Positions 297 to 10,939 of a stretch of 64,000 nucleotides of DNA are shown in pieces. Location of the stretch: contig NZ_JWMA01000076.1 of the NCBI RefSeq assembly GCF_000812465.1, positions 1-64,000 of the forward strand, written 5' to 3'. The notes under the pieces are model-generated. The model saw only the letters and a program-made list of their open reading frames with translations, was not told the DNA's origin and did no database searches. Within the stretch, counting starts at the first letter, position 1. Every line of letters begins with the position of its first letter. The DNA comes from Cupriavidus sp. IDO (GTDB lineage: Bacteria > Pseudomonadota > Gammaproteobacteria > Burkholderiales > Burkholderiaceae). The position numbers and the translations under genes were made by a program.

Positions 297-2597
297 TTAC
301 GGCTTGCCCAGGTACAGATAGAAGCTATAGTGACCAGCCGCAGCCCGCCCATAGGCGAGGTATAGTGGCCCGACCGGCGTGTCCAGCGCTACAAACAGCG
401 ACCCGGATTTGAGCACGCCGGTGGGGCTCCCCGGCACCAGCGGCGCACCCATGCGGCCCGCTTCCAGCGAGAAGCCACCATATACGCCTTCGAGCAAGGA
501 CTGCCTGGCCAGCTTGTAGTAGTAGACGGCCCGCACGAATTCGAGATTGGCCCCTATCAACTGCCCGGTACTGTATCCCGACTGCTGCAGGAAGCCTCCC
601 CACTGGAACAGGTCATAGCGCGGCAGCGGATTGCCACCGATATTGCTACCCGCCTTGAAGCCGAAATTGAGCGTGTGCCGGCCTTCCGACCACGCGTAGC
701 TGCCGTCGGCATCGGCCTTGACGTACGCCTGGCTGGCGCCCAGGCCCGGCTCGGAAGCAAAGACATGTGCCGTGGCGGCGTAACCCGAGCGCGGGAAGCT
801 CGTGCTGTCCAGTTGGTCGAGCAGGAGCCGGCCCGTGATGGCGCCGCGCTTGACATAGTCGGGGCCCGGCGAGAGAAAAGCGGGTCCGGTACTAAGGCTT
901 ACGTTCTCGCGACCAAACAGCACGCCAAGCCTGGCTTCGCCGTACTTGGTGAACTGGCTGCCGACATCCAGGGCAATGTCATACTGGCGCAGGTCATACG
1001 TTGCGATACGGTCTGTGTCGCGGAACACGTAGACGGGACGGCGCTCGAGTTCCACGCGCGGTGCGACAAAGAGGGACTGCCGGGTGTTCAGCGGCTGGTA
1101 GAACTCGCTGGTCAGGCTGCTCGTCTGTCCTGCCTGCACATCGGTGCGCCATTCGGCGCCGAGCGAATTGATCCAGGTGCGGCGATGACTGGCCAGCAGG
1201 TTGAAATAGGACTCGCCGCGGAAGTCGGTGCTCAGTCCCAGACCAAAGCGCAGGTAGTTCGGCCCGTATGATTTTTCGATGGCGTCAACCGACAGGATCC
1301 GCTTGCCGGGCTCCTCGAGAATGCGGTAGTTGACGTATTCAAAATCCCCGGTGCCGAACAGCCGGCTCATATCCTGATCCAGCTCGGCCTGCTGGATGGG
1401 CAGGCCGGGCCTGGTCTCCATGGTGGCGGCAGCGAAGTCCGGATTGACGCGCTCCAATGGTGCGAAGCGAATCTCGTCGACTGGCCGCGGATCGGGCGGC
1501 GCAACATCCTGCTGGCGTTTGCGCAATGCGGCATAGGCCTGTGGCGGCAGGCCAAGCGGCGCCAGCCGGTCCTCCACCTTGCGTGCGGCGGCCTCGCCGA
1601 TGGGGATGGTCTTTGGCAGGTGGTCAAAGTCGGTTGCCGAGAAATCGCCCAGCTCGGGCAAGATCAGGATGTCTTCGGGCCTGAGCCGGGCCAGCGAGGC
1701 ACGCACGTTCTGTTCGGTGAGGATATTAAGCATCTGCCCGGTCACCCCGAGCAGGGAGCCCAATTCTTCGCGCCGCATGAGCGGCGTACCGAGGTTGACG
1801 GCAATGATGATGTCGGCGCCCATGGCGCGCGCCACATCCACGGGCAGGTTGTTTGTCAGCCCCCCGTCGACCAGCAGGTGCCCCTCGTAGTCGATCGGCG
1901 CGACGACCCCGGGCACCGACATGCTGGCGCGCATGACACTGGCCAGCTCGCCCTCGCTGAATACAACGGCGGTGCCTGTCACCAGGTCGGTCGCTACCGC
2001 GCGGTATGGAATCGGCAGGGCGTCGAAATTGCGATACCCCGGCGCACGCGCCAGCCCGCGCAGCACCTTCTCGAGTTGCACGCCGGTGATGGCGCCCTTG
2101 GGCAGCACCAGGCTGCCGTCCTTGACGCCAACTTCGGGGGTGAAGAGATTGGTGCGGTCTTCCAGCTTGCGCCGGATGGCAAGATCCTGCCGTGGGGGCC
2201 GCTCCCTGAACAGCTCCTTGCTGGACAAGCCGGACACCAGCGCCTCCATCTCGTCCGCGGTGACGCCGGTGGCATAAGCCGCACCGACCAGCGAACCCAT
2301 GCTGGTGCCCGTGATGCAGTCAACCGGCACGCGCAGCGATTCCAGGACCTTCAACACGCCGATATGGGCAGCGCCACGAGCACCGCCGCCGGACAGCACC
2401 AGGCAGATACGGGGCCGGCCGAGGGGAGCGGCAGGAGACTGCGCTGCCGCAAAAGTCGGTGAAAGGAGCGTGATGAATGCGGCGGCCAGTGCACACCCAA
2501 GGCGCCTGGGGTGCGCGCGCCTTGACGGGCACGCATCTTCTCGGTGGACTATCCATGCCGGGCACCGATGCTTTCTTGATATCGCTTCGGCATTCAT
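297..2597 (-). CDS. Patatin-like phospholipase with POTRA and outer-membrane barrel (type Vd-like autotransporter)
   Basis: Predicted lipid acyl hydrolase carried to the cell surface. A hydrophobic signal at residues about 33-53 is followed by the patatin domain: the glycine-rich oxyanion motif GGGARG (70-75), nucleophile Ser99 in GTSMG and Asp244 in DGG, the Ser-Asp dyad of the family. Residues about 360-430 fit a POTRA domain, and the rest, rich in alternating aromatic strands and ending near an aromatic-rich terminus, fits a surface-antigen (BamA-like) barrel. The 766 aa length resembles PlpD of Pseudomonas, the type Vd prototype. The N terminus before the signal is unusually long (about 32 residues, basic), so the true start may lie further in. 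Secretion of the passenger is inferred. Confidence 0.85.
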   Translation of the reverse strand: MNAEAISRKHRCPAWIVHREDACPSRRAHPRRLGCALAAAFITLLSPTFAAAQSPAAPLGRPRICLVLSGGGARGAAHIGVLKVLESLRVPVDCITGTSMGSLVGAAYATGVTADEMEALVSGLSSKELFRERPPRQDLAIRRKLEDRTNLFTPEVGVKDGSLVLPKGAITGVQLEKVLRGLARAPGYRNFDALPIPYRAVATDLVTGTAVVFSEGELASVMRASMSVPGVVAPIDYEGHLLVDGGLTNNLPVDVARAMGADIIIAVNLGTPLMRREELGSLLGVTGQMLNILTEQNVRASLARLRPEDILILPELGDFSATDFDHLPKTIPIGEAAARKVEDRLAPLGLPPQAYAALRKRQQDVAPPDPRPVDEIRFAPLERVNPDFAAATMETRPGLPIQQAELDQDMSRLFGTGDFEYVNYRILEEPGKRILSVDAIEKSYGPNYLRFGLGLSTDFRGESYFNLLASHRRTWINSLGAEWRTDVQAGQTSSLTSEFYQPLNTRQSLFVAPRVELERRPVYVFRDTDRIATYDLRQYDIALDVGSQFTKYGEARLGVLFGRENVSLSTGPAFLSPGPDYVKRGAITGRLLLDQLDSTSFPRSGYAATAHVFASEPGLGASQAYVKADADGSYAWSEGRHTLNFGFKAGSNIGGNPLPRYDLFQWGGFLQQSGYSTGQLIGANLEFVRAVYYYKLARQSLLEGVYGGFSLEAGRMGAPLVPGSPTGVLKSGSLFVALDTPVGPLYLAYGRAAAGHYSFYLYLGKP

Positions 2598-2747: not shown

Positions 2748-4079
2748 TCAGGACGGCCGGATCTTGCGGGTGTGCCTTGCCCTCTTGACCTTGGGAGCCG
2801 CTGGTGGCGGCAGGTCCGGCGGCGCCGCAAGTAGTTCGGCCTGCCCCGGCAGGCGCTCGGAACTGGCGCCAGACTGCGCACGGTCAGGCGGCATGACCTG
2901 GTGCTTCAAGCTCTCGAGCTGCTCCCACAGTGCGCGCGCCAGCCGGTTCTGCTCCAGCGCGATGGCGCGTACGGCGTCGGGATCGGCAGGAAGATCGGAG
3001 GGGGCCAGGACGGCGGGCACGCCGCCAGCGTTTCCGATGCCAAATGACGCATTTGTGCCTGAATCCTGGGGTGCCGCCACATTACCCTTTCTGCTACGCC
3101 ACTTCGAAACGCTGCACCCGAAGCGGCTCCCGAACCAGCGGGAAAATGCGCTCAAGGATGAGAAGCCCACCAGCGTCGCGACTTCAGACAGCGACCGATC
3201 ATCGCTATCGATATACCGCTTCACCAGGTCCTCCCGCACGCCGTCGACGATAGCCAGGTAACTGTCGCCGTGCTGCGCGAGGCGGTTATATACGGTCCTG
3301 CGACCGACGCCCAGATGCTGCGCCACGCGATCCACTGAACAGGTGCCCGACGGCAGTAGCGTGATGACGAGCTTCCTTACCTTGTCGGACATCGTCGCGT
3401 TGGACTGAGCCAGCATCGCATCCAGGTAACGGCGCACCTGCTGCGCCATGACCGGATCGTAAGCCGGGATCGCGACTTCAAGATCGGCCGCCTGGCACAC
3501 AAGACCATCAAAATCCTGCCTGAACAGAACCGGGGCCCCAAACACCCGCGCGTACATGGCGAGGCTGGCGGGAGCGGAATGCGTGAAGCAGATAGTACGA
3601 GGCCGCCACGCGGCGCCGAGAAGCGTGCTCAGCGTTCTGTGCAAGACGCCCAGCACCAGTTGCATTGCCTGCCGCATGGAGCCGGCGTAGCCGGCGAGCA
3701 GGTCCTCGCGGATGATGACGATGCCCTCCGCTTCCTCGATGCGCATGTGGAGCGCTTCATTCTGCAGCCGCAGGTAGTGCGACACCGAGTCGAGCGCCTT
3801 GCGTAGCGTAGGCTGCTCCTGCATCACAAAACCGAGCGGCCCAAGGTTGGAGAGCTGCCGGGTCTCCGCCATGCGCAGGCCAAGATCCTCGATGCCCGCG
3901 GCCTCGGCCGATGCCTCCAGCAGGCGCCCCGCCGCCTCGGCCGGAATCATGGTGTCCGGGGCCAATAACGCGGACCGGTCAATGCCGGCGTCACGCAAGT
4001 GCCGATAGGGGTCGATCCCAACGGATCGCGCCACCTTGACGTAGTCGGTCAGGGCGGCGCTGCGAACCAAGTAGGCCAT
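2748..4079 (-). CDS. AraC-family transcriptional regulator with arabinose-binding-like N domain and C-terminal extension
   Basis: Likely regulator of the divergent catabolic operon that begins at 4222. The N-terminal half fits the Arabinose_bd (OruR/ArgR-type) ligand domain, and a double helix-turn-helix of AraC type follows (VAQHLGVGRRTVYNRL, then VATLVGFSSLSAFSRWF). I chose the ATG at 4079 because the family starts right before such a sequence; the frame is open to 4229 but that would run over the divergent promoter. About 100 proline- and charge-rich residues follow the HTH, whereas relatives normally end there at around 340 aa. The ligand is unknown; a beta-keto acid or its precursor is the natural guess from the neighbours. 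Confidence 0.85.
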   Translation of the reverse strand: MAYLVRSAALTDYVKVARSVGIDPYRHLRDAGIDRSALLAPDTMIPAEAAGRLLEASAEAAGIEDLGLRMAETRQLSNLGPLGFVMQEQPTLRKALDSVSHYLRLQNEALHMRIEEAEGIVIIREDLLAGYAGSMRQAMQLVLGVLHRTLSTLLGAAWRPRTICFTHSAPASLAMYARVFGAPVLFRQDFDGLVCQAADLEVAIPAYDPVMAQQVRRYLDAMLAQSNATMSDKVRKLVITLLPSGTCSVDRVAQHLGVGRRTVYNRLAQHGDSYLAIVDGVREDLVKRYIDSDDRSLSEVATLVGFSSLSAFSRWFGSRFGCSVSKWRSRKGNVAAPQDSGTNASFGIGNAGGVPAVLAPSDLPADPDAVRAIALEQNRLARALWEQLESLKHQVMPPDRAQSGASSERLPGQAELLAAPPDLPPPAAPKVKRARHTRKIRPS

Positions 4080-4221
4080 AAGGTTTTCCCGTACTACCCA
4101 ATATGTAAATTCAAACTCCCGGGATGTCAAATTGCCAATCCGCCCGTCTCCGATACTTGCCTCCAGACACACGAGGCGCGCATACGCAGCACGCCATCCG
4201 AGACAGTCAAGGAGACGAGTC
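4080..4221. promoter_or_regulatory. Divergent control region between AraC gene and catabolic operon
   Basis: A 142-bp, comparatively AT-rich gap separates two diverging genes. It holds two loosely similar blocks, ATGTAAATTCAAA (from about 4103) and ATGTCAAATTGCC (from about 4124), spaced by about two helical turns, which could be AraC half-sites. The operon side ends in AAGGAGA, a good ribosome-binding site for the gene at 4222. No clean sigma70 promoter stands out. Role inferred from position. Confidence 0.5.
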
Positions 4222-4629
4222 ATGAGCAATAAGACGAGCGGTACCGCTACGCCGGTCTGCGATCACCTGCGCGCAACCGGCCACTGGAATCCGGCCTGGG
4301 ATCCCGTCGCGGAACTGGATCCCGCCTGGACAGAGAAATTCATGGCAATGGGCGCGCACACGGTGATGTCGGGCGTGCTGGAGCCGAAGGTGCTCGAATT
4401 CATCGCCATCGCGGTGGACGCGTCCTGCACCCATATGTACGCACCGGGCACGCGCCGTCATATCCGCAAGGCGCTCGAACTGGGCGCCACCGGGGCAGAA
4501 ATTGCTGCCGTGCTGCAGGCGGTGAGTGTGCTTGGCATCCATACCAGCAGCCTGGGGGCACCAATCCTTCTGGAGGAACTGGCGGCCATCGAGCAGGCCA
4601 GGACGACCAGCACCCAGGCTGCCGCCTGA
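4222..4629 (+). CDS. Carboxymuconolactone decarboxylase / AhpD-like family protein
   Basis: A 135-aa protein of the all-helical CMD/AhpD fold. The core reads LEPKVLEFIAIAVDASCTHMYAPG followed within a few residues by RRHIRKALELGAT. AhpD enzymes carry a CxxC plus a His in this place; here there is a single Cys (SCTHMY), so thiol-disulfide peroxidase chemistry is unlikely and a decarboxylase, hydrolase or ring-opening role is more plausible. The ATG at 4222 is preceded by AAGGAGA. It is first in an operon with BKACE, MFS and SDR genes and probably handles an early or side intermediate of the same substrate. Confidence 0.8.
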   Translation: MSNKTSGTATPVCDHLRATGHWNPAWDPVAELDPAWTEKFMAMGAHTVMSGVLEPKVLEFIAIAVDASCTHMYAPGTRRHIRKALELGATGAEIAAVLQAVSVLGIHTSSLGAPILLEELAAIEQARTTSTQAAA

Positions 4630-4696
4630 GTGCCAATCCGCGATCCCCCAATCCCCCAATCACTTCACTCACGAACATCATCGAGGACGACAAGCC

Positions 4697-5752
4697 ATGC
4701 ATTTCCCAGACGACTCCCTGCTGCCCGAAAACCAGGAAAAACTCGTGATCCAGGTCGCGCCGTACGGGCCGCAGTGGATCCCCGGCGACTCGGACGATAT
4801 CCCGGTCACGATGGACGAGCAGATCCAGAAGGCGGTCGACTGCTACAACGCCGGCGCCACCGTGCTGCACGTGCATGTGCGCGAGGCCGACGGCAAGGGC
4901 AGCAAGCGCTTGTCCATGTTCAACGAGATGCTGGCCCGCCTGCGCGAAGCCGTGCCCGGGATGGTGCTGCAAGTCGGCGGTTCGATTTCGTTCGCGCCGG
5001 AAGACGAAGGCCAGGCGGCCAGGTGGATGAATGACGACACGCGTCACATGCTGGCTGAACTGGATCCCCGTCCAGACCAGGTGACGGTCGCGATCAACAC
5101 CAGCCAGATGAACGTGATGGAGTTGATGACCGAGGCCGATATTGCCGGCACCTCGCTCACCAGCCCGGCGCTCCAGGCCGCCTACCGCGACATGATCGTG
5201 CCGTCCAATCCGTCCTGGCACGAGGAGCACATCCGGCGATTGGTTGCCAGCGGCATCCAGCCGCATTTCATGCTGGGCCATATTGCTTCATTGGAGACGG
5301 TCCAGCGCCTGATCCGTCGGGGCATCTACACGGGCCCGTTGATCCTCAACTACGTGGCCATCGGCGGCGGTGCTGCCGGCTTGCATCCAGCCGACATGCT
5401 GGAGTTCGCGCGGCGCACGCCCGATGGGGCCGTGCTCACGCTGGAAACCCTGAATCGCAACGTAGTGCCAATGAACACCATGGCCATCGCGCTGGGCCTG
5501 CACGTGCGCGTCGGCATCGAGGACACGCTGTTCGGCCCGGACGGGGAACGCGCGACCTCGGTGCAGCAGATCGAGAAGATGGTGCGCATTGCGCGTGAGC
5601 TCAATCGCGACATCGCCACTGGCGAAGATGCCCACCGCATCTATCAGATCGGCACCCAGTGGAAATCCACGGATGACACGCTGAAAGCCCTGGGCATGGC
5701 GCCCAACCGTGCGCCAGCGCAGCGCGGTGTTCCTGTGCGCAAGGTAGCGTAA
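4697..5752 (+). CDS. BKACE-family beta-keto acid cleavage enzyme (DUF849)
   Basis: Predicted to condense a beta-keto acid with acetyl-CoA, releasing an acetoacetate product and a new acyl-CoA, as known for 3-keto-5-aminohexanoate cleavage enzyme (Kce). The metal ligands of the family are in place: His58 and His60 in LHVHVRE, and Glu275 in RVGIED. Arg271 and Asp276, matching the catalytic Arg and Asp of Kce, are also kept. At 351 aa it is longer than Kce (about 275 aa), with insertions before and after the barrel core. The start is the ATG at 4697 behind GAGGA. The specific substrate cannot be read from sequence; BKACE subgroups act on carnitine-, lysine- and other keto acids. Confidence 0.88.
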   Translation: MHFPDDSLLPENQEKLVIQVAPYGPQWIPGDSDDIPVTMDEQIQKAVDCYNAGATVLHVHVREADGKGSKRLSMFNEMLARLREAVPGMVLQVGGSISFAPEDEGQAARWMNDDTRHMLAELDPRPDQVTVAINTSQMNVMELMTEADIAGTSLTSPALQAAYRDMIVPSNPSWHEEHIRRLVASGIQPHFMLGHIASLETVQRLIRRGIYTGPLILNYVAIGGGAAGLHPADMLEFARRTPDGAVLTLETLNRNVVPMNTMAIALGLHVRVGIEDTLFGPDGERATSVQQIEKMVRIARELNRDIATGEDAHRIYQIGTQWKSTDDTLKALGMAPNRAPAQRGVPVRKVA

Positions 5753-5836
5753 GCCGGTGAGTCCCGGACGGACTGCGGCAGCGTACCGTATTTCGTCCGG
5801 CACACGACAAATGATCCTGCGGCCTGGAGACCTCTG

Positions 5837-7111
5837 ATGTTCTGGAAAAAAAGCCCCTCTGCCGTTCTGGCAACGTTGTTGACGATCCACCTGCTTGCGC
5901 ATATCGACCGCAACATGCTGCTGGGCTTCTCGCCGCAAATCATCAAGGATCTGGCGATCAACAATGCGCAATATGGATTCCTGGTCGGCGCGGTCTGGGT
6001 GCTGAGCTTCGGCGTCATGGCAATGTTCATGGGCACGCTCGCGGATCGCTTCAGCCGGACGCGGATCATCGCGGCCGGCGTGCTGATCTGGAGCGCCTGC
6101 ACCTGGGCGTCTGGCCACGCCCAGACCTTCGAGCAAATGGCGATCGCGCGCTTCTTTGTCGCCAGCGGCGAGGCGGCCCTCGTGCCAGCCGCGGTGGGAT
6201 TGCTGGCCGAGCTGTTCTCCGAGAAGCGTCGCGGCACGGCGATGGGCTTGTTCTTCATGGGCATCCCCCTGGGTATCGGCTGCAGCTTCCTGCTGGCCGG
6301 CACCATTGGTGCCGCGCACGGCTGGCGCACAACCTTTTATGCCCTGGGCGTGATCGGTGTCGCCATTGCCGTACCGCTGGCCTTGCTGAAGGAAGATCGC
6401 GGCCAGCTCGCACCGCAGGAGGTGGGTGCCCCCGCCCTCAAACAAGTGCTTGCAGTACTTCGACTGATCAGGGGGCATCGCGCGCTTCGCTTCACCATCG
6501 TTGGCTTCGTGCTGACGCACATCGCCTTCGCCGGCCTCTCCTTTACGCAACTGTGGATGGTGAACGAGCGCGGCATGGATGCCGCCGGCATCGCCACCCG
6601 CATCGGCGCGCTGCAACTGGTGTTCGGCACGCTGGGCTCGGTGGTGGGTGGCGTCCTCAGCGACCGCGTGGCGCGCAAACTACCTGGCGGACATGCCACG
6701 TTCATGACGTTGCTGATCGTCATCTGCGCACCATTGGTCATCGCCTATCGTTTCGCCCCTGCCGGCTCCGCCCTGTTCTACATCGGCATGTGCGTGGGCT
6801 TCTTCCTGCCGCTGGCACTTTACGGCCCGGCCAATGCAGCTATCACGAGCATGGCGCCGCAGAAGATGCGCTCGACGATCTCTGGCTTCACGATGCTATG
6901 CATCAATGTCTTCGCGATCGCGATTGGCACCGTGGCCGTCGGCGCTGCGACAGATTATCTCGTCGCGAATGGCAGCACTGCGCCGCTGACACGCGTACTG
7001 CTGACCACCGACGTGCTCGCTATCGCTTCAGCACTCTTCTTCGCGCTGGCCGCGCGCGCGTCGTGTAAGCAGCCGGCCATCGACATTCACCCCCTGCAAG
7101 CCACAAGGTAA
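5837..7111 (+). CDS. MFS transporter (sugar-acid/organic-anion symporter type)
   Basis: A 424-aa integral membrane protein with about 12 hydrophobic segments and the MFS loop 2-3 signature near GTLADRFSRTR (residues about 66-76). It is probably the importer for the compound degraded by the flanking genes: the next gene starts 6 bp after its stop. The start ATG follows GGAGACCTCTG. An exporter role is possible but less likely within a catabolic operon. Confidence 0.85.
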   Translation: MFWKKSPSAVLATLLTIHLLAHIDRNMLLGFSPQIIKDLAINNAQYGFLVGAVWVLSFGVMAMFMGTLADRFSRTRIIAAGVLIWSACTWASGHAQTFEQMAIARFFVASGEAALVPAAVGLLAELFSEKRRGTAMGLFFMGIPLGIGCSFLLAGTIGAAHGWRTTFYALGVIGVAIAVPLALLKEDRGQLAPQEVGAPALKQVLAVLRLIRGHRALRFTIVGFVLTHIAFAGLSFTQLWMVNERGMDAAGIATRIGALQLVFGTLGSVVGGVLSDRVARKLPGGHATFMTLLIVICAPLVIAYRFAPAGSALFYIGMCVGFFLPLALYGPANAAITSMAPQKMRSTISGFTMLCINVFAIAIGTVAVGAATDYLVANGSTAPLTRVLLTTDVLAIASALFFALAARASCKQPAIDIHPLQATR

Positions 7112-7117
7112 GGAATC

Positions 7118-7957
7118 ATGAAGCAGAATCAAGGGAAAAATCTCCAAGGGCGAGTCGCCCTGGTCACTGGCGCCGGTCGCGGCATGGGTGGCGCTATCGC
7201 GATCGACCTCGCCGGGGCGGGTGCGCACGTCGTGATCTGTGACATCGACATGCCCGCACTCGAGCAAACGCGCGTGGCGGTGGAAGCGGCCGGTGCACAG
7301 TGCCTCGCGCTGCGCTGCGACGTGTCATCGAGGATTGAAGTCGACAGCATGTTCGCCGCTATCGTCAAACGCTTCGGCACATTGCACATCCTGGTCAATA
7401 ACGCTGCGCTCGTGCCAAACCGGCCAATCGACATCGAGCGCCGCAACAAGCATTACGCCTATATCACCTCCCCGGTGCCACGCCAGTCTCTGAGCTTTAC
7501 CAGCAATATGAGTGACGAAGACTGGCATCGTTACTGGGACGTCAACGTGCATGGCCTGTTCTATTGCACGCGCGAAGCGCTCACGCTGATGGAACCTCAG
7601 CGAAACGGCAAGATCATCAACATCGCATCGATTGCCGGCTTCTCGGCGATGAGCGCGCACAGCCCGAATTACTGCGCGACCAAAGGCGCGGTAATCGCCT
7701 TCACCAAATCGGTAGCCGCTGAAGTGGCCGGTGCCAATATTTTTGTCAATGCGATGGCTCCAGGGGGTGTGGCAACCCCAGAATTTACGGAGTATTTCGA
7801 GAGCATGGATGAGGCAAAGCGCAACCAATTCTGGCAAGTATGTCCGGCCGGACGTCTGGGGTCGATGCATGAATACGCATCAACCGTAACCTACCTGGCC
7901 GGCGATCATTATCTGATCGGCCAAGTGATCAGCCCCAACGGTGGAGTTGTGATCTGA
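7118..7957 (+). CDS. SDR-family NAD(P)-dependent oxidoreductase
   Basis: Classical short-chain dehydrogenase of 279 aa. It has the cofactor motif TGAGRGMG (residues 17-24), NNAA, and the catalytic YCATK. CDID after beta-2, with an acidic residue at its tip, favours NAD. An insertion of about 25 residues between the NNAA motif and the next helix (around NKHYAYITSPVPRQ) is unusual and may shape substrate choice. It closes the AraC-controlled operon and would oxidise a hydroxy acid to the keto acid fed to the BKACE enzyme, or reduce a product; the direction is inferred. An AAGGAATC ribosome-binding site precedes the ATG. Confidence 0.87.
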   Translation: MKQNQGKNLQGRVALVTGAGRGMGGAIAIDLAGAGAHVVICDIDMPALEQTRVAVEAAGAQCLALRCDVSSRIEVDSMFAAIVKRFGTLHILVNNAALVPNRPIDIERRNKHYAYITSPVPRQSLSFTSNMSDEDWHRYWDVNVHGLFYCTREALTLMEPQRNGKIINIASIAGFSAMSAHSPNYCATKGAVIAFTKSVAAEVAGANIFVNAMAPGGVATPEFTEYFESMDEAKRNQFWQVCPAGRLGSMHEYASTVTYLAGDHYLIGQVISPNGGVVI

Positions 7958-8361: not shown

Positions 8362-9138
8362 TCAGCCGTCCCTGTATTGGGCTCCACCATCGGCGTCAAC
8401 CACGACACCGCTCAGATAAGAGGCACGATCAGACGCCAGGTAAACGACCAGATCTGCGATTTCCTCCGGTCGGGCGGCACGTCCGAACGGCAGGTGCTGG
8501 AGCATTTCCTCCCACCGCGACTCGTCCCCGAACTTCTGGAGCGCGCGCGCCTTGTAGAGCGAGATCAGACGATCTGTCCTTGTTGGGCCGGGATTCACCC
8601 CAACGACTCGCACGCCCCGCGTCGTGGCGAAAGCGCCGACCGCACGCGTGAATGTGGAAAGTGCGGCATTACCGACCGATCCGCAAAGGTAGTCATAGCG
8701 CGGCATCCTGGCGGCAATGCCGATTACGTTCACGATGACGCCCCGACCGCGCGCCATCATTTCCGGAAGGGCCTGGCGCGTCGTATCAATGTAACCATGG
8801 ACCTTGAGATCCCAAGCGGTGCGCCACTGCTCGTCGCTTAGCGAAGTCAATCCCCCGCCGGGGATCGCCCCGGCGTTGTTGACGAGGATGTCGGCGCCTC
8901 GGAGCTGCTCGGCGAGCGCTTGCCGCCCCTCGGGGCGCGACAGATCTGCGCAAAGCGCCTTTACGCCGATGCCTTCCCTGTCCCGCAATGCAATTCGCGC
9001 TTCGTCCACGGAAGCTTGGGTACTGCCGGCGACGATGACCTGGGCACCTTCGACGACAAATGCCCTGGCGCAGGCCAGACCGATGCCACGTGTACCGCCG
9101 GTGATGAGTACCGATTTTCCCGCGAGGTGTAGGTCCAT
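8362..9138 (-). CDS. SDR-fold protein lacking the Ser-Tyr-Lys catalytic triad
   Basis: A 258-aa Rossmann protein with an intact cofactor motif TGGTRGIG (13-20), the NNAG motif (87-90) and the C-terminal SGVVVDADGG typical of classical SDRs. Where the active-site YxxxKAAL should be, the sequence reads GSVGNAAL (153-160), so Tyr is Gly153 and Lys is Asn157, and the Ser about 13 residues earlier is missing too. It still looks well conserved and full length, so it is probably not decaying; it may use other residues (Tyr148 or Tyr150 are close) or act as a non-classical enzyme or binding protein. Second gene of a two-gene operon behind a cupin (54-bp gap). Confidence 0.85.
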   Translation of the reverse strand: MDLHLAGKSVLITGGTRGIGLACARAFVVEGAQVIVAGSTQASVDEARIALRDREGIGVKALCADLSRPEGRQALAEQLRGADILVNNAGAIPGGGLTSLSDEQWRTAWDLKVHGYIDTTRQALPEMMARGRGVIVNVIGIAARMPRYDYLCGSVGNAALSTFTRAVGAFATTRGVRVVGVNPGPTRTDRLISLYKARALQKFGDESRWEEMLQHLPFGRAARPEEIADLVVYLASDRASYLSGVVVDADGGAQYRDG

Positions 9139-9192
9139 TTCTCTTGTCCCCGACGCTGGCGTTCAACCGCAGAGAGGAAGTCAAACACAGTC

Positions 9193-9594
9193 TCATTGAT
9201 CGTTGACCGTCTCGATCTTCGCCGGCATATGAATCTCGATCAGCTCGCAGTCATCCGACCACCCCACGACTGTGTGTCGTATGCCGGGTGGCTGCACCCA
9301 ACTCGATCCCGCGACGAGGCGGTGACGCCCAACGCCCTCAAATTCGGTCTCGAACCAGCCCTTGAGGCAGTAGACCATCTGGAACTTCAGGTTGTGGTGG
9401 TGTTGCAGGCTCAGCTCGGGGCGGAAGGGAGCAATCATTCGGATCACATGGGCCTCTACCATTCCGCCTGACGCATCAGCGACTCCCAAATCCCGATAGG
9501 CGGAGTAGCCGCGCAGGCCTCCGGTCTTGAAGTCCGCCTCCTTCAGGTGACTGACGACAAAGCGCTGCTGACTTGATTGCAGTTCGGTTGCCAT
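9193..9594 (-). CDS. Small cupin-domain protein
   Basis: A 133-aa single cupin. Motif 1 is visible as QHHHNLKFQMVYCLKG and motif 2 as SWVQPPGIRHTVVG; the His cluster and the later His can form a metal site. Such proteins act as isomerases, dioxygenases or sensors of small acids. It starts at an ATG with GAGGG upstream and is probably co-transcribed with the SDR downstream. The partner hydrolase gene diverges about 550 bp away, which suggests a small degradation or detoxification module; the substrate is unknown. Confidence 0.8.
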   Translation of the reverse strand: MATELQSSQQRFVVSHLKEADFKTGGLRGYSAYRDLGVADASGGMVEAHVIRMIAPFRPELSLQHHHNLKFQMVYCLKGWFETEFEGVGRHRLVAGSSWVQPPGIRHTVVGWSDDCELIEIHMPAKIETVNDQ

Positions 9595-10144
9595 GCTGCC
9601 CTCGCCAAGTTATGTGTTTGGAACACAACGGAACGCGCATTTCTGATTGAGATAAGGTGCCACCTGTGCCGAAAAGCCGAGACCCGGAAGCCCGGCAAGA
9701 AAGGCTAACTTCCGGCGCCCCCTACTGGCTCGCGATCGTCGCCCCGTACAAGAGATGGCATTCCGCTGCCGGCGGAACCCGCCAACAGCAAGCCGAATAT
9801 GACCATCAGGGCGGCGACCTTGGCCCCTGAATTCGATATGGTCACGCCCCTCGTATCGAGACTGCGACGACGACTATGATCCTGCTTCAGGATTACTCAG
9901 TACGCCATCGCACAGACAGGCGAGCACCATGGTAGCGGGGCGACATTCGCTCGGGGCACGACTTGACGCGAACCCTGAGTCGGACGGCCCGCTTCCGCGG
10001 CTATCTGATCCGAAGTGGAGGAGGTTTGCCTGCCGCACTGCTGACGCTCGTCACGCCCGCCTGGCGGCGCTAATATCAATCTCGACGGCGCGATCGTCGA
10101 CGCGTTCGACGTCTCCTTCATTGCTCTGAACCCGGAGAAGCAAA
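9595..10144. other. 550-bp gap between divergent cupin and hydrolase genes
   Basis: Should hold the promoters of both transcription units. No strong palindrome or promoter stands out. Just before the hydrolase, a frame from about 10045 to 10141 encodes a protein-like stretch (NINLDGAIVDAFDVSFIALN) that has no start or end of its own and overlaps the next gene; it may be a remnant of a lost gene. Confidence 0.4.
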
Positions 10145-10939
10145 GTGCCATACGTAACGTCCGACGGTGTTTCGATCCACTACGAGCTCAAGGGCCAGGG
10201 TTCGCCCGTGCTTCTTCTGGCGGGGCTTGCGGGTGTGGGCGCGTCCTGGGGCCCACAGATCAATCTCTTCGCCCAGCATCACCAGGTGATCGTACCTGAT
10301 CACCGCGGTACGGGCGCTTCCGAGCACACTGCACACGACATGACGATTGCGCAACACGCGCGGGACATGGCGCGGGTCATCGAGGCGGTCGGACGCGGGC
10401 CAGTCCACGTGGTCGGCTCCTCAACCGGGGGCGCCATCGCACAGTTGCTGGCGATCCATCACCGCGAACTATTGCGTAGCGCGACGATTGTCTCTTCGAT
10501 TGCACGCGCGGACGCGTTCTACCGTCGACAATTCGACATGCGGCGACGCATGCTGACCGATTCCGGCCTGCGCGCGTCCACCGAGGCAAACGCACTGTTC
10601 CTCTTCGATCCGAAGTTCATTCGCGAGTACCCGGAGCAGGTCCAGGCTTGGGTGAACACTTCATCGGCTCGCACATTCGAACCTGAGATCGGCTTTGCCC
10701 GGATCGACATGATCGTGGAGCACGACGCCTTCGATGATCTTCCGTCGATCGCGACGCCGACGCTGGTGCTGGTGGGCGAGCGCGACTTCTGCGCCCCGCC
10801 GTACTTCTCCTCGGAGCTTGCAGAGCGGATTCCGGGAGCCGAGTTTGCCATCCTGGACGGTGGTCACTTCATCTTCCTGGAGAAGCCCGAACTACTGCAC
10901 GATACCGTTGAGGGCTTCATCGCCAAGCACGAGCGATGA
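10145..10939 (+). CDS. Alpha/beta hydrolase
   Basis: A 264-aa alpha/beta-fold hydrolase with the full triad visible: Ser93 in GSSTGG, Asp214 in GERDFCAP and His241 in GGHFIF. The oxyanion-hole region is LLLAGLAGVGASW. The start is a GTG preceded by GGAGAAG at good spacing. Esters, lactones or C-C bonds of ring-cleavage products are typical substrates; the neighbouring cupin and SDR genes fit a catabolic module, but nothing in the sequence fixes the substrate. Confidence 0.85.
   Translation: MPYVTSDGVSIHYELKGQGSPVLLLAGLAGVGASWGPQINLFAQHHQVIVPDHRGTGASEHTAHDMTIAQHARDMARVIEAVGRGPVHVVGSSTGGAIAQLLAIHHRELLRSATIVSSIARADAFYRRQFDMRRRMLTDSGLRASTEANALFLFDPKFIREYPEQVQAWVNTSSARTFEPEIGFARIDMIVEHDAFDDLPSIATPTLVLVGERDFCAPPYFSSELAERIPGAEFAILDGGHFIFLEKPELLHDTVEGFIAKHER

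What the first reader, a model, noticed from the sequence alone, without database searches (positions are those of the whole stretch)
4079..7957. AraC-controlled BKACE operon for an unidentified compound
A regulator, an AhpD-like protein with a single Cys, a BKACE enzyme with all metal and catalytic residues, an importer and an SDR with an unusual 25-residue insert form a compact pathway. BKACE substrates are known for only some subgroups, and this gene combination is not one I recognise.
Basis: partly seen in the sequence, partly recalled or inferred. Interest (0 to 1): 0.55.

Follow-up and report, generated by a model that had tools for sequence, protein, structure and literature searches.

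The report
Odd acid-degradation operon lacking canonical glutamate
A soil bacterium's gene set for importing and breaking down an unidentified organic acid recurs in many other bacteria under the same kind of switch, and its key enzyme belongs to a branch that has lost an amino acid its studied relative needs, so its exact reaction is open and testable.

Summary
The five genes are real, compactly arranged, and form a recurring module (AraC regulator, CMD-family protein, BKACE-family enzyme, transporter, SDR) seen from Cupriavidus to Nocardia. AraC control is supported by a new observation: a direct-repeat site of 21-bp period in the divergent promoter region (window 4097-4130), found also before other module-type genes of this genome. 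The claim that the BKACE has "all metal and catalytic residues" is wrong. Zinc ligands (H58, H60, E275) and R271/D276 are kept, but the glutamate proposed as catalytic base (E171 of a studied BKACE; its E171L mutant is inactive) is Met192. None of 118 aligned members of this ~350-residue clade (100/100 support) has it. The protein is only 26% identical to a BKACE beside carnitine dehydrogenase, 22% to BKACEs of deoxyribonate-like clusters, and far below NCBI cut-offs for three defined BKACE types. A glutamate on another strand (E250, 117 of 118) is a candidate replacement. The SDR insert is a constant subfamily feature; the CMD protein has two cysteines and no CxxC. Best reading: acetyl-CoA-dependent shortening of a beta-keto acid, releasing acetoacetate, by a rebuilt active site. 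Close rival: different chemistry, like DUF849 groups reported as "not BKACE". Substrate unknown.

The parts
2748..4079 (-). AraC-type regulator (443 aa; Arabinose_bd PF12625 + HTH_18), divergent from the operon; about 105-residue C-terminal tail not seen in the relatives compared
   Evidence: Pfam 154.6 and 52.9 bits; relatives' median 336 aa, next longest 367 (own gene calls)
4097..4130 (+). Putative AraC-type operator: direct repeat CCCN5GTNAA-N8-CCCN5GTNAA, period 21 bp
   Evidence: Paired site in 20 of 54 divergent intergenic regions (200 mononucleotide shuffles: mean 0.11, max 2); window site 41.9 bits with a matrix that includes it, next best place in the window 2.9; own genome 10 matches with up to 1 mismatch, 0 with the reversed control pattern
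4222..4629 (+). CMD (PF02627) family protein, 135 aa, no CxxC motif; E59, D66, T70, H71, P75, G76, H80, H107, E119 in all 55 rows
   Evidence: Pfam 32.6 bits, cut-off 23; 55-row alignment; nearest solved structure by sequence 2q0t, two-domain, E 9e-52
4697..5752 (+). DUF849/BKACE-family enzyme of the ~350-aa clade, 351 aa; predicted Zn ligands H58, H60, E275; R271, D276 kept
   Evidence: Pfam 214.9 bits; model pLDDT 87, DUF849 structures at Z about 33; tree
5270..5278 (+). Codons 192-194: Met192 and Gly194 stand where Paracoccus BKACE15 has Glu171 and Tyr173
   Evidence: Ungapped alignment over this stretch; Glu at this column in 0 of 118 clade rows and 9 of 10 other BKACE rows, 18 of 19 in a second set
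5444..5446 (+). Codon of Glu250 at the end of a predicted strand: clade-specific acid, candidate replacement base
   Evidence: Glu in 117 of 118 clade rows, 0 of 10 others; strand 246-250 in the model
5837..7111 (+). MFS transporter, presumed importer
   Evidence: PF07690 155.9 bits; weak similarity to aromatic-acid and galactonate symporters, far below their cut-offs
7118..7957 (+). SDR with about 25-residue insert; presumed hydroxy-acid dehydrogenase
   Evidence: PF00106 168.1 bits
7415..7504 (+). SDR segment (residues 100-129) that holds the insert; R109, P119, L125 (and W136, W140 just after) invariant in 45 of 45, Y113 in 44

Best explanation
An AraC-regulated catabolic operon for a hydroxylated organic acid. 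The MFS protein imports it (inferred). The SDR oxidises a hydroxyl to give a beta-keto acid (inferred). The Zn-dependent DUF849 enzyme then transfers the terminal two carbons to acetyl-CoA, releasing acetoacetate and a two-carbon-shorter acyl-CoA (inferred). The active site is rebuilt: the family's usual catalytic Glu is gone (shown by alignment) and a clade-specific Glu250 may do its work (inferred). The CMD protein performs a partner step that cannot yet be named; it lacks the CxxC pair of AhpD-type peroxidases. Regulation is probably through AraC binding the 21-bp direct repeat between the two divergent genes (site shown, binding inferred).
For: Zn ligands and R271/D276 in all 118 clade rows, all 111 when identical rows are merged; R271 matches R254 of BKACE15, earlier proposed as the base; DUF849 structures top the fold search. 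The residue matching the Arg that contacts CoA adenosine in BsfD (R226, here R254) is Arg in 103 of 118. Acetoacetate-CoA ligase (820 bits, cut-off 520.9) follows an 86%-identical relative and its MFS gene in L058; homologues lie at two further BKACE350 loci, L135 and a Streptomyces plasmid. SDR in 45 of 81 BKACE directons. The genetically supported deoxyribonate pathway uses the same SDR-BKACE-MFS logic (PMC6365646 passages). Operator.
Against: E171L abolished activity of Paracoccus BKACE15, E171D kept 5% (PMC11961710), and Met stands at that place here. DUF849 groups G6 and G7 and a subgroup of G3 are listed as 'not BKACE', G7 inactive on all tested substrates (PMC4922564); this clade may be one of them (not tested). 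A canonical ~310-aa BKACE lies in the same directon in L193 and L144 and on the same contig 7 kb away in L146, and within the loci L060, L063, L068, L069 of 100 stretches searched, so the two types may do different jobs. Acetoacetate-CoA ligase was found at only 3 distinct loci among 115 stretches plus the window at E 1e-60, none of them in the window. The position matching BsfD Lys254 is Asp in the window protein. The side-chain direction of E250 was not seen.
Confidence: 0.45

Rival explanations
1. The ~350-aa clade does not catalyse the BKACE reaction: having lost the catalytic Glu, the Zn enzyme decarboxylates or hydrolyses its beta-keto or beta-diketo acid, and a canonical 310-aa BKACE, where present, does the acetyl-CoA step.
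For: No Glu at column 192 in 118 of 118 rows; E171L inactive in BKACE15; DUF849 groups listed as 'not BKACE, presenting decarboxylation activity' (G6) and 'not BKACE' (G7, a G3 subgroup); relatives with other chemistry in the same fold, cis-epoxysuccinate hydrolase and ObcA, in the structure search; BKACE350 and BKACE310 in one directon in L193 and L144.
Against: Predicted CoA-contact Arg mostly kept, 103 of 118; acetoacetate-CoA ligase next to the 86% relative in L058, where no 310-type BKACE was found at E 1e-40 within the 21 kb held; conservation of R271/D276 in all rows.
Confidence: 0.35
2. Known pathway in disguise: deoxyribonate, carnitine/dehydrocarnitine or beta-ketoadipate breakdown.
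For: SDR + BKACE + MFS is the deoxyribonate gene set of Pseudomonas simiae, and the Paraburkholderia bryophila cluster also has an araC-family regulator beside it (PMC6365646).
Against: 26% identity to a BKACE beside L-carnitine dehydrogenase. Two Paraburkholderia/Caballeronia clusters (L215, L219) with an AraC - BKACE - MFS - SDR order like that reported for P. bryophila have ~310-aa BKACEs that keep Glu and Tyr and are 22% identical to the window's (that these are the deoxyribonate clusters is inferred from gene order). NCBIfam scores are far below the cut-offs. The word carboxymuconolactone does not occur in PMC6365646. The published deoxyribonate sequences themselves were not compared.
Confidence: 0.04
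3. The natural substrate carries sulfur: YeiH-type putative sulfate exporters belong to the module in other hosts, so a sulfonated or sulfated acid is broken down and the sulfur expelled.
For: A YeiH-type gene (PF03601; the one tested scores 118 bits, below the TIGR00698 cut-off of 232.6) in 16 of 81 BKACE directons; also annotated beside BKACE350 on Rhodococcus and Novosphingobium plasmids; TauD/TfdA dioxygenases in the sister module.
Against: No gene was labelled YeiH in the stretches of the window's own genome that I read or in the window's first 20 kb; no desulfonating enzyme is recognisable in the window operon; what YeiH moves is itself only putative.
Confidence: 0.1
4. The DUF849 protein is a degenerate or non-catalytic protein.
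For: Loss of Glu and Tyr.
Against: Zn ligands and GGS motif invariant and E250 nearly so across many genera.
Confidence: 0.03

Closest known systems
[quoted passage not shown]
   Same: Fold, predicted Zn site (two His, one Glu), Arg/Asp pair, partner gene classes
   Different: 22-27% identity to the 310-aa rows compared, N- and C-terminal extensions, catalytic Glu replaced by Met, Tyr by Gly, clade-specific Glu250
Deoxyribonate pathway of Pseudomonas simiae and Paraburkholderia (PMC6365646)
   Same: SDR oxidises, BKACE cleaves, MFS imports; araC-family regulator in the P. bryophila cluster
   Different: No CMD protein mentioned; GntR and lactonase in P. simiae; in clusters of the same gene order the BKACE is of the ~310-aa type with Glu
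Carnitine degradation (L-carnitine dehydrogenase + dehydrocarnitine BKACE)
   Same: Oxidation to a beta-keto acid followed by BKACE
   Different: Dehydrogenase is of the 3-hydroxyacyl-CoA type, not SDR; its BKACE keeps the Glu
BsfD of flavophos biosynthesis (PMC12871164) and DUF849 groups G6/G7 (PMC4922564)
   Same: DUF849 members reported to depart from BKACE chemistry
   Different: BsfD keeps the Glu (alignment) and has Phe for Tyr; whether this clade equals G6 or G7 was not testable
CMD structure 2q0t of Burkholderia xenovorans
   Same: Both of its halves match the window CMD protein
   Different: Two fused domains; title calls it putative, no function given (organism recalled)

Membership tests
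Pfam BKACE family PF05853 | Score above Pfam gathering cut-off over the whole domain | tested here: met
   214.9 bits, cut-off 24.8, profile 1-273 of 274
Functional BKACE (acetyl-CoA-dependent beta-keto acid cleavage) | Zn ligands two His and one Glu | tested here: met
   H58, H60, E275
Functional BKACE (acetyl-CoA-dependent beta-keto acid cleavage) | Catalytic Glu (E171 of BKACE15) | tested here: not met
   Met192; 0 of 118 clade rows have Glu; E171L inactive in BKACE15
Functional BKACE (acetyl-CoA-dependent beta-keto acid cleavage) | Tyr at 173 (said in PMC12871164 to be in all BKACEs) | tested here: not met
   Gly194; but a poor marker: of 19 other BKACE rows 9 have Tyr and 10 Phe, Phe also beside carnitine dehydrogenase
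Functional BKACE (acetyl-CoA-dependent beta-keto acid cleavage) | Forms acetoacetate from acetyl-CoA | not testable with these tools
   Only context: acetoacetate-CoA ligase homologues at 3 related loci
Dehydrocarnitine BKACE | Clusters with a BKACE next to carnitine dehydrogenase | tested here: not met
   26% identity; other side of a 100/100 branch; neighbour 663.7 bits, cut-off 414, tested for L164 only
KAH, 3,5-dioxohexanoate, 3-oxoadipate BKACE equivalogs | NCBIfam score above cut-off | tested here: not met
   133/382, 108/430, 76/350 bits
Deoxyribonate pathway | BKACE orthologous to PS417_07250 / H281DRAFT_00641 | tested here: inconclusive
   Those sequences were not obtained; BKACEs of clusters with the same gene order are 22% identical to the window's
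AhpD-type peroxidase | CxxC redox pair | tested here: not met
   No CxxC in P0005; C69 in 50 of 55, no Cys pair among conserved columns
AraC-regulated operon | Divergent AraC gene with a repeat site in the promoter region shared by relatives | tested here: met
   (site); binding itself not testable
DUF849 groups G6/G7 of Bastard 2014 | Active-site profile of the group | not testable with these tools
   Group profiles and member lists are not held; only the account in PMC4922564 was read

The most novel reading that the evidence does not exclude
A whole clade of DUF849 enzymes has moved its catalytic carboxylate from the strand of E171 to another strand (E250) and, together with a non-redox CMD protein and an insert-bearing SDR, runs a widespread, uncharacterised acid-degradation route from Proteobacteria to Actinobacteria under one conserved AraC operator; its reaction may be a new one in this fold.
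Probability: 0.35. Interest if true: 0.65.

Novelty: new variant of a known kind. Interest (0 to 1): 0.5.

Why it matters
Where the records seen carry an annotation, proteins of this clade are called '3-keto-5-aminohexanoate cleavage protein', yet they lack a residue shown to be needed in a studied relative. If the clade has relocated the base or changed reaction, that name is wrong in mechanism, and a common module for an unknown acid becomes identifiable: the operator gives a way to find the inducer and the regulon, and the active-site swap gives a one-mutant test.

Tried and rejected
Deoxyribonate, carnitine and beta-ketoadipate routes: see rivals. Substrate by name: among the NCBIfam families shown, no equivalog reached its cut-off for the BKACE, MFS, SDR or AraC protein and none was listed for the CMD protein (only the best 25 of 33 and of 219 were shown for the MFS and SDR). 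Literature, held PMC library only: '3-keto-5-aminohexanoate cleavage' with 'carboxymuconolactone decarboxylase' (0 papers), with 'Cupriavidus' (1 paper, passages on a catechol-linked COG3246 protein), 'DUF849' + 'short-chain dehydrogenase' + 'AraC' (0), and broad BKACE terms (18 and 39 papers): I saw no description of this module, but for most of those papers only title and start of abstract were seen. Passages of PMC12133276, PMC8963497 and PMC12393044 added nothing on this clade. VceA (vanilloyl acetate enzyme) was looked up as a possible aryl analogue: no family given, dropped; that it might be a BKACE is recalled only. PhaC/PhaZ/MaoC-like genes lie beside some loci (L054, L065, L067, L070, L096, L108, L142, L149) and suggested hydroxyalkanoate monomers as substrate; few and mostly not in the BKACE directon, not pursued. 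The next genes of the window (SDR 8362-9138 -, cupin-like 9193-9594 -, alpha/beta hydrolase 10145-10939 +) were considered as part of the pathway and left out: two on the other strand, none a recurring member. Sigma-70 and terminator scan: no promoter-like site, 6 terminator-like sites against 2.9 in shuffles, of no help. First ORF calling by length mis-picked antisense frames and was replaced by a codon-usage caller. Four further NCBIfam scans of 8 to 10 neighbour proteins named few genes. Absence of other folds from the pdb_via list was not used. Rows and limits: the 118-row count includes the window and near-duplicates; merged at identity, 95% and 90% it is 111, 88 and 66 rows, with no Glu at 192 in any. 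Two fragment rows (L015, L017) were left out of the 118. In the 44-row tree four 310-type rows are on long branches and the tool warns that joins of long branches, the 350 clade's own among them, may be false; the separation of the two types is firm, the position of the root is not. The 20-of-54 operator count uses a strict pattern; of the 34 regions that failed it I scored 14 with the matrix, which holds 15 sites including the window's. The gene names of the C103 operator neighbourhood come from weak similarity and from my own reading.
Full report
What is there. The window holds an AraC-type regulator (2748-4079, minus) divergent from four tightly spaced plus-strand genes: a CMD-family protein (4222-4629), a PF05853 (BKACE/DUF849) enzyme (4697-5752), an MFS transporter (5837-7111) and an SDR (7118-7957). 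All pass Pfam cut-offs; the gaps are 142, 67, 84 and 6 bp. The genome (7.9 Mb, 206 contigs) has 18 PF05853 matches, four of them fragments at contig ends. The closest named relative is Cupriavidus basilensis, BKACE 90% identical; the genome itself is unnamed.

It is a recurring module. Of 299 genomes of the family searched with the window enzyme, 120 match at E 1e-40, the window's own among them; 11 others have it at 84-89% identity and 8 at 70-76%. AraC and CMD homologues lie beside it in 10 of those 11, an MFS at least 65% identical in 9 of 11; L028 has none of these at such identity (the stretches were only 1.5 kb each side). With my own gene caller and clustering, the BKACE directons of these 80 loci plus the window contain single-domain CMD in 48 of 81, two-domain CMD in 16, SDR in 45, the window-type MFS in 25, a Bug binding protein in 19, an acyl-CoA ligase in 18, a YeiH-type putative sulfate exporter in 16.

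The catalytic claim fails. In Paracoccus BKACE15, E171 is proposed as the base; E171L is inactive and E171D keeps 5% (PMC11961710, passages seen). Tyr173 is called common to all BKACEs in the BsfD preprint (PMC12871164, passages and the whole of section 8 read). The alignments, ungapped here, place E171 on Met192 and Y173 on Gly194 of the window protein. Over 118 rows of the ~350-aa type, position 192 is Met 96, Gln 21, Val 1 and never Glu; in 10 rows of the ~310-aa type it is Glu 9, Ile 1, and in a second set of 19 it is Glu 18, Ile 1. Position 194 is Gly 85, Ala 17, Thr 12, Tyr 2, Val 1, Ser 1, against Tyr 6 and Phe 4. Of the 19, 9 have Tyr and 10 Phe, Phe being present beside carnitine dehydrogenase; so, against the preprint's statement, Tyr is a weak marker, and Glu a strong one. 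The Zn ligands H58, H60, E275 and R271, D276 are in 118 of 118. Merging near-identical rows leaves the picture unchanged. The clade has its own conserved residues, notably E250 (117 of 118, 0 of 10 outside). The model (pLDDT 87) puts 246-250 on a strand; that E250 points into the barrel is inferred from position only, since no coordinates could be read.

Where it stands in the family. In a 44-row tree the 25 rows of the ~350-aa type are one side of a 100/100 branch of length 2.64 (the tool warns about long branches, so only the split is used). Identity of the window protein to the 310-aa rows is 22-27% by BLASTP, including 26% to two identical BKACEs; the neighbour of one of them was tested and scores 663.7 bits (cut-off 414) as L-carnitine dehydrogenase. 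A MAFFT alignment gives 30% for that protein. NCBIfam scores are far below the cut-offs for the KAH, dioxohexanoate and oxoadipate enzymes. Structure searches find DUF849 proteins first (Z about 33), then cis-epoxysuccinate hydrolase (30) and ObcA (26). PMC4922564 (section 22 read whole) lists, for the seven groups of the 2014 family survey, G6 and G7 and a subgroup of G3 as 'not BKACE'; G7 was inactive on every substrate tested and G6 showed decarboxylation. Whether this clade is one of them I could not test; the 2014 paper itself was not seen.

The deoxyribonate route, checked late. On rechecking PMC6365646 I found that the Paraburkholderia bryophila deoxyribonate cluster has an araC-family regulator, which brings it nearer to the window than the GntR-controlled P. 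simiae cluster. I therefore read stretches of Paraburkholderia, Caballeronia and Pseudomonas genomes around ~310-aa BKACEs. L215 and L219 have an AraC gene (Arabinose_bd 134.7 and 128.6 bits), BKACE, MFS and SDR in that order, as reported for P. bryophila. Their BKACEs keep Glu and Tyr, are 72% identical (L215) to one of the window genome's other BKACEs (L004), and 22% identical to the window's. So the deoxyribonate enzyme is most likely of the ~310-aa type, and the window's module is not it; the published sequences themselves were not at hand.

Two subclasses. Residue 192 follows gene context. Among 85 BKACE350 rows in the 81 loci, of 77 with Met192 a single-domain CMD gene lies within 4.5 kb in 52, a two-domain one in 15, an SDR of any kind in 44, TauD in 6; of 7 with Gln192, TauD in 5, QOR in 4, CMD in 1; the one Val192 row has a two-domain CMD. 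The second subclass sits in a QOR-TauD/TfdA-BKACE-hydrolase cluster, usually with an MFS gene, also annotated so on plasmids of Novosphingobium, Rhodococcus, Azoarcus and Streptomyces. By analogy with gamma-butyrobetaine breakdown (recalled: hydroxylase, dehydrogenase, BKACE, thioesterase) that cluster could hydroxylate, oxidise, cleave and hydrolyse; this is inference.

Evidence on the product. An acetoacetate-CoA ligase (820 bits, cut-off 520.9) follows BKACE and MFS in Burkholderia catarinensis L058, whose BKACE is 86% identical to the window's; homologues lie in L135 (cut by the locus end) and on a Streptomyces plasmid, so at 3 distinct loci among 115 stretches plus the window. This favours acetoacetate release. 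The residue matching BsfD Arg226, which contacts CoA, is Arg in 103 of 118; the one matching Tyr251 is aromatic in 94 of 118 (Phe in the window); the one matching Lys254 is Asp in the window and Lys in 65 of 118. Against it stand the lost Glu and the presence of a canonical 310-aa BKACE in the same directon in Diaphorobacter (L193) and in the window's own genome (L144).

CMD and SDR. The CMD protein lacks CxxC; E59, D66, T70, H71, P75, G76, H80, H107 and E119 are in all 55 rows, C69 in 50, C13 in 27. So it is not an AhpD-like CxxC enzyme; its step is unknown. The SDR insert occurs in 45 of 45 SDRs at least 50% identical to the window's; of 16 other SDRs in the loci 15 lack it and one, at 49%, has it.

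Operator. Between the AraC and CMD genes lies CCCAATATGTAAA-N8-CCCGGGATGTCAA (4097-4130). A strict paired pattern occurs in 20 of 54 divergent intergenic regions, 17 of 21 pairs at exactly 21 bp, against a mean of 0.11 and a maximum of 2 in 200 mononucleotide shuffles. A matrix from 15 sites, the window's included, gives the window site 41.9 bits and the next place in the 64 kb 2.9. Of 14 loci taken from the 34 that failed the strict pattern, 11 score above 22, L086 22.0, L075 10.5, and L077 has none. In the whole genome 10 places match with up to one mismatch, none with the reversed pattern. Seven lie by module-type genes: the window; C111 and C194 (BKACE350); C135 (AraC/QOR); C111 again and C150 (MFS8); C103 (read by me as aldehyde dehydrogenase, Bug protein, acyl-CoA dehydrogenase, ligase). 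C104, C148 and C168 look like chance.

Verdict. A real, AraC-linked, widespread module whose central enzyme is not a textbook BKACE. The most likely reaction is still acetyl-CoA-dependent shortening of a beta-keto acid (0.45), with different chemistry close behind (0.35).

Noticed in passing
window 2748-3071 (-): The AraC-type regulator has a ~105-residue Pro/Arg-rich C-terminal tail; the next longest of its relatives is 367 aa, median 336.
   Followed up: partly
G000 contig C29 (L144, L145): Four PF05853 genes (two ~310-aa, two ~350-aa type) within about 10 kb, with TauD, QOR, SDR, AraC and porin-like genes.
   Followed up: partly
G000 C111/C194 ends and C135/C161 starts: Contigs break inside a BKACE350 gene, with nearly identical halves at each pair of ends (258 of 260 and 472 of 480 bases), so at least two near-identical copies probably exist.
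   Followed up: partly
L075, L105, L190, L189 and others: YeiH-type putative sulfate exporters in 16 of 81 BKACE350 directons hint at a sulfur-bearing substrate in some hosts.
   Followed up: partly
L054, L096, L108, L142, L149: PhaC-, MaoC- and PhaZ-like genes beside BKACE350 modules.
   Followed up: no
window 8362-10939: SDR (-), cupin-like protein (-) and PcaD/RutD-like alpha/beta hydrolase (+) next to the operon; not part of the recurring module.
   Followed up: partly
window 297-2543 (-): Patatin-like phospholipase fused to an Omp85 domain.
   Followed up: no
G000 C103 around 11635: Exact operator match in front of a run read as aldehyde dehydrogenase, Bug protein, acyl-CoA dehydrogenase and acyl-CoA ligase, a possible further part of the regulon.
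   Followed up: partly
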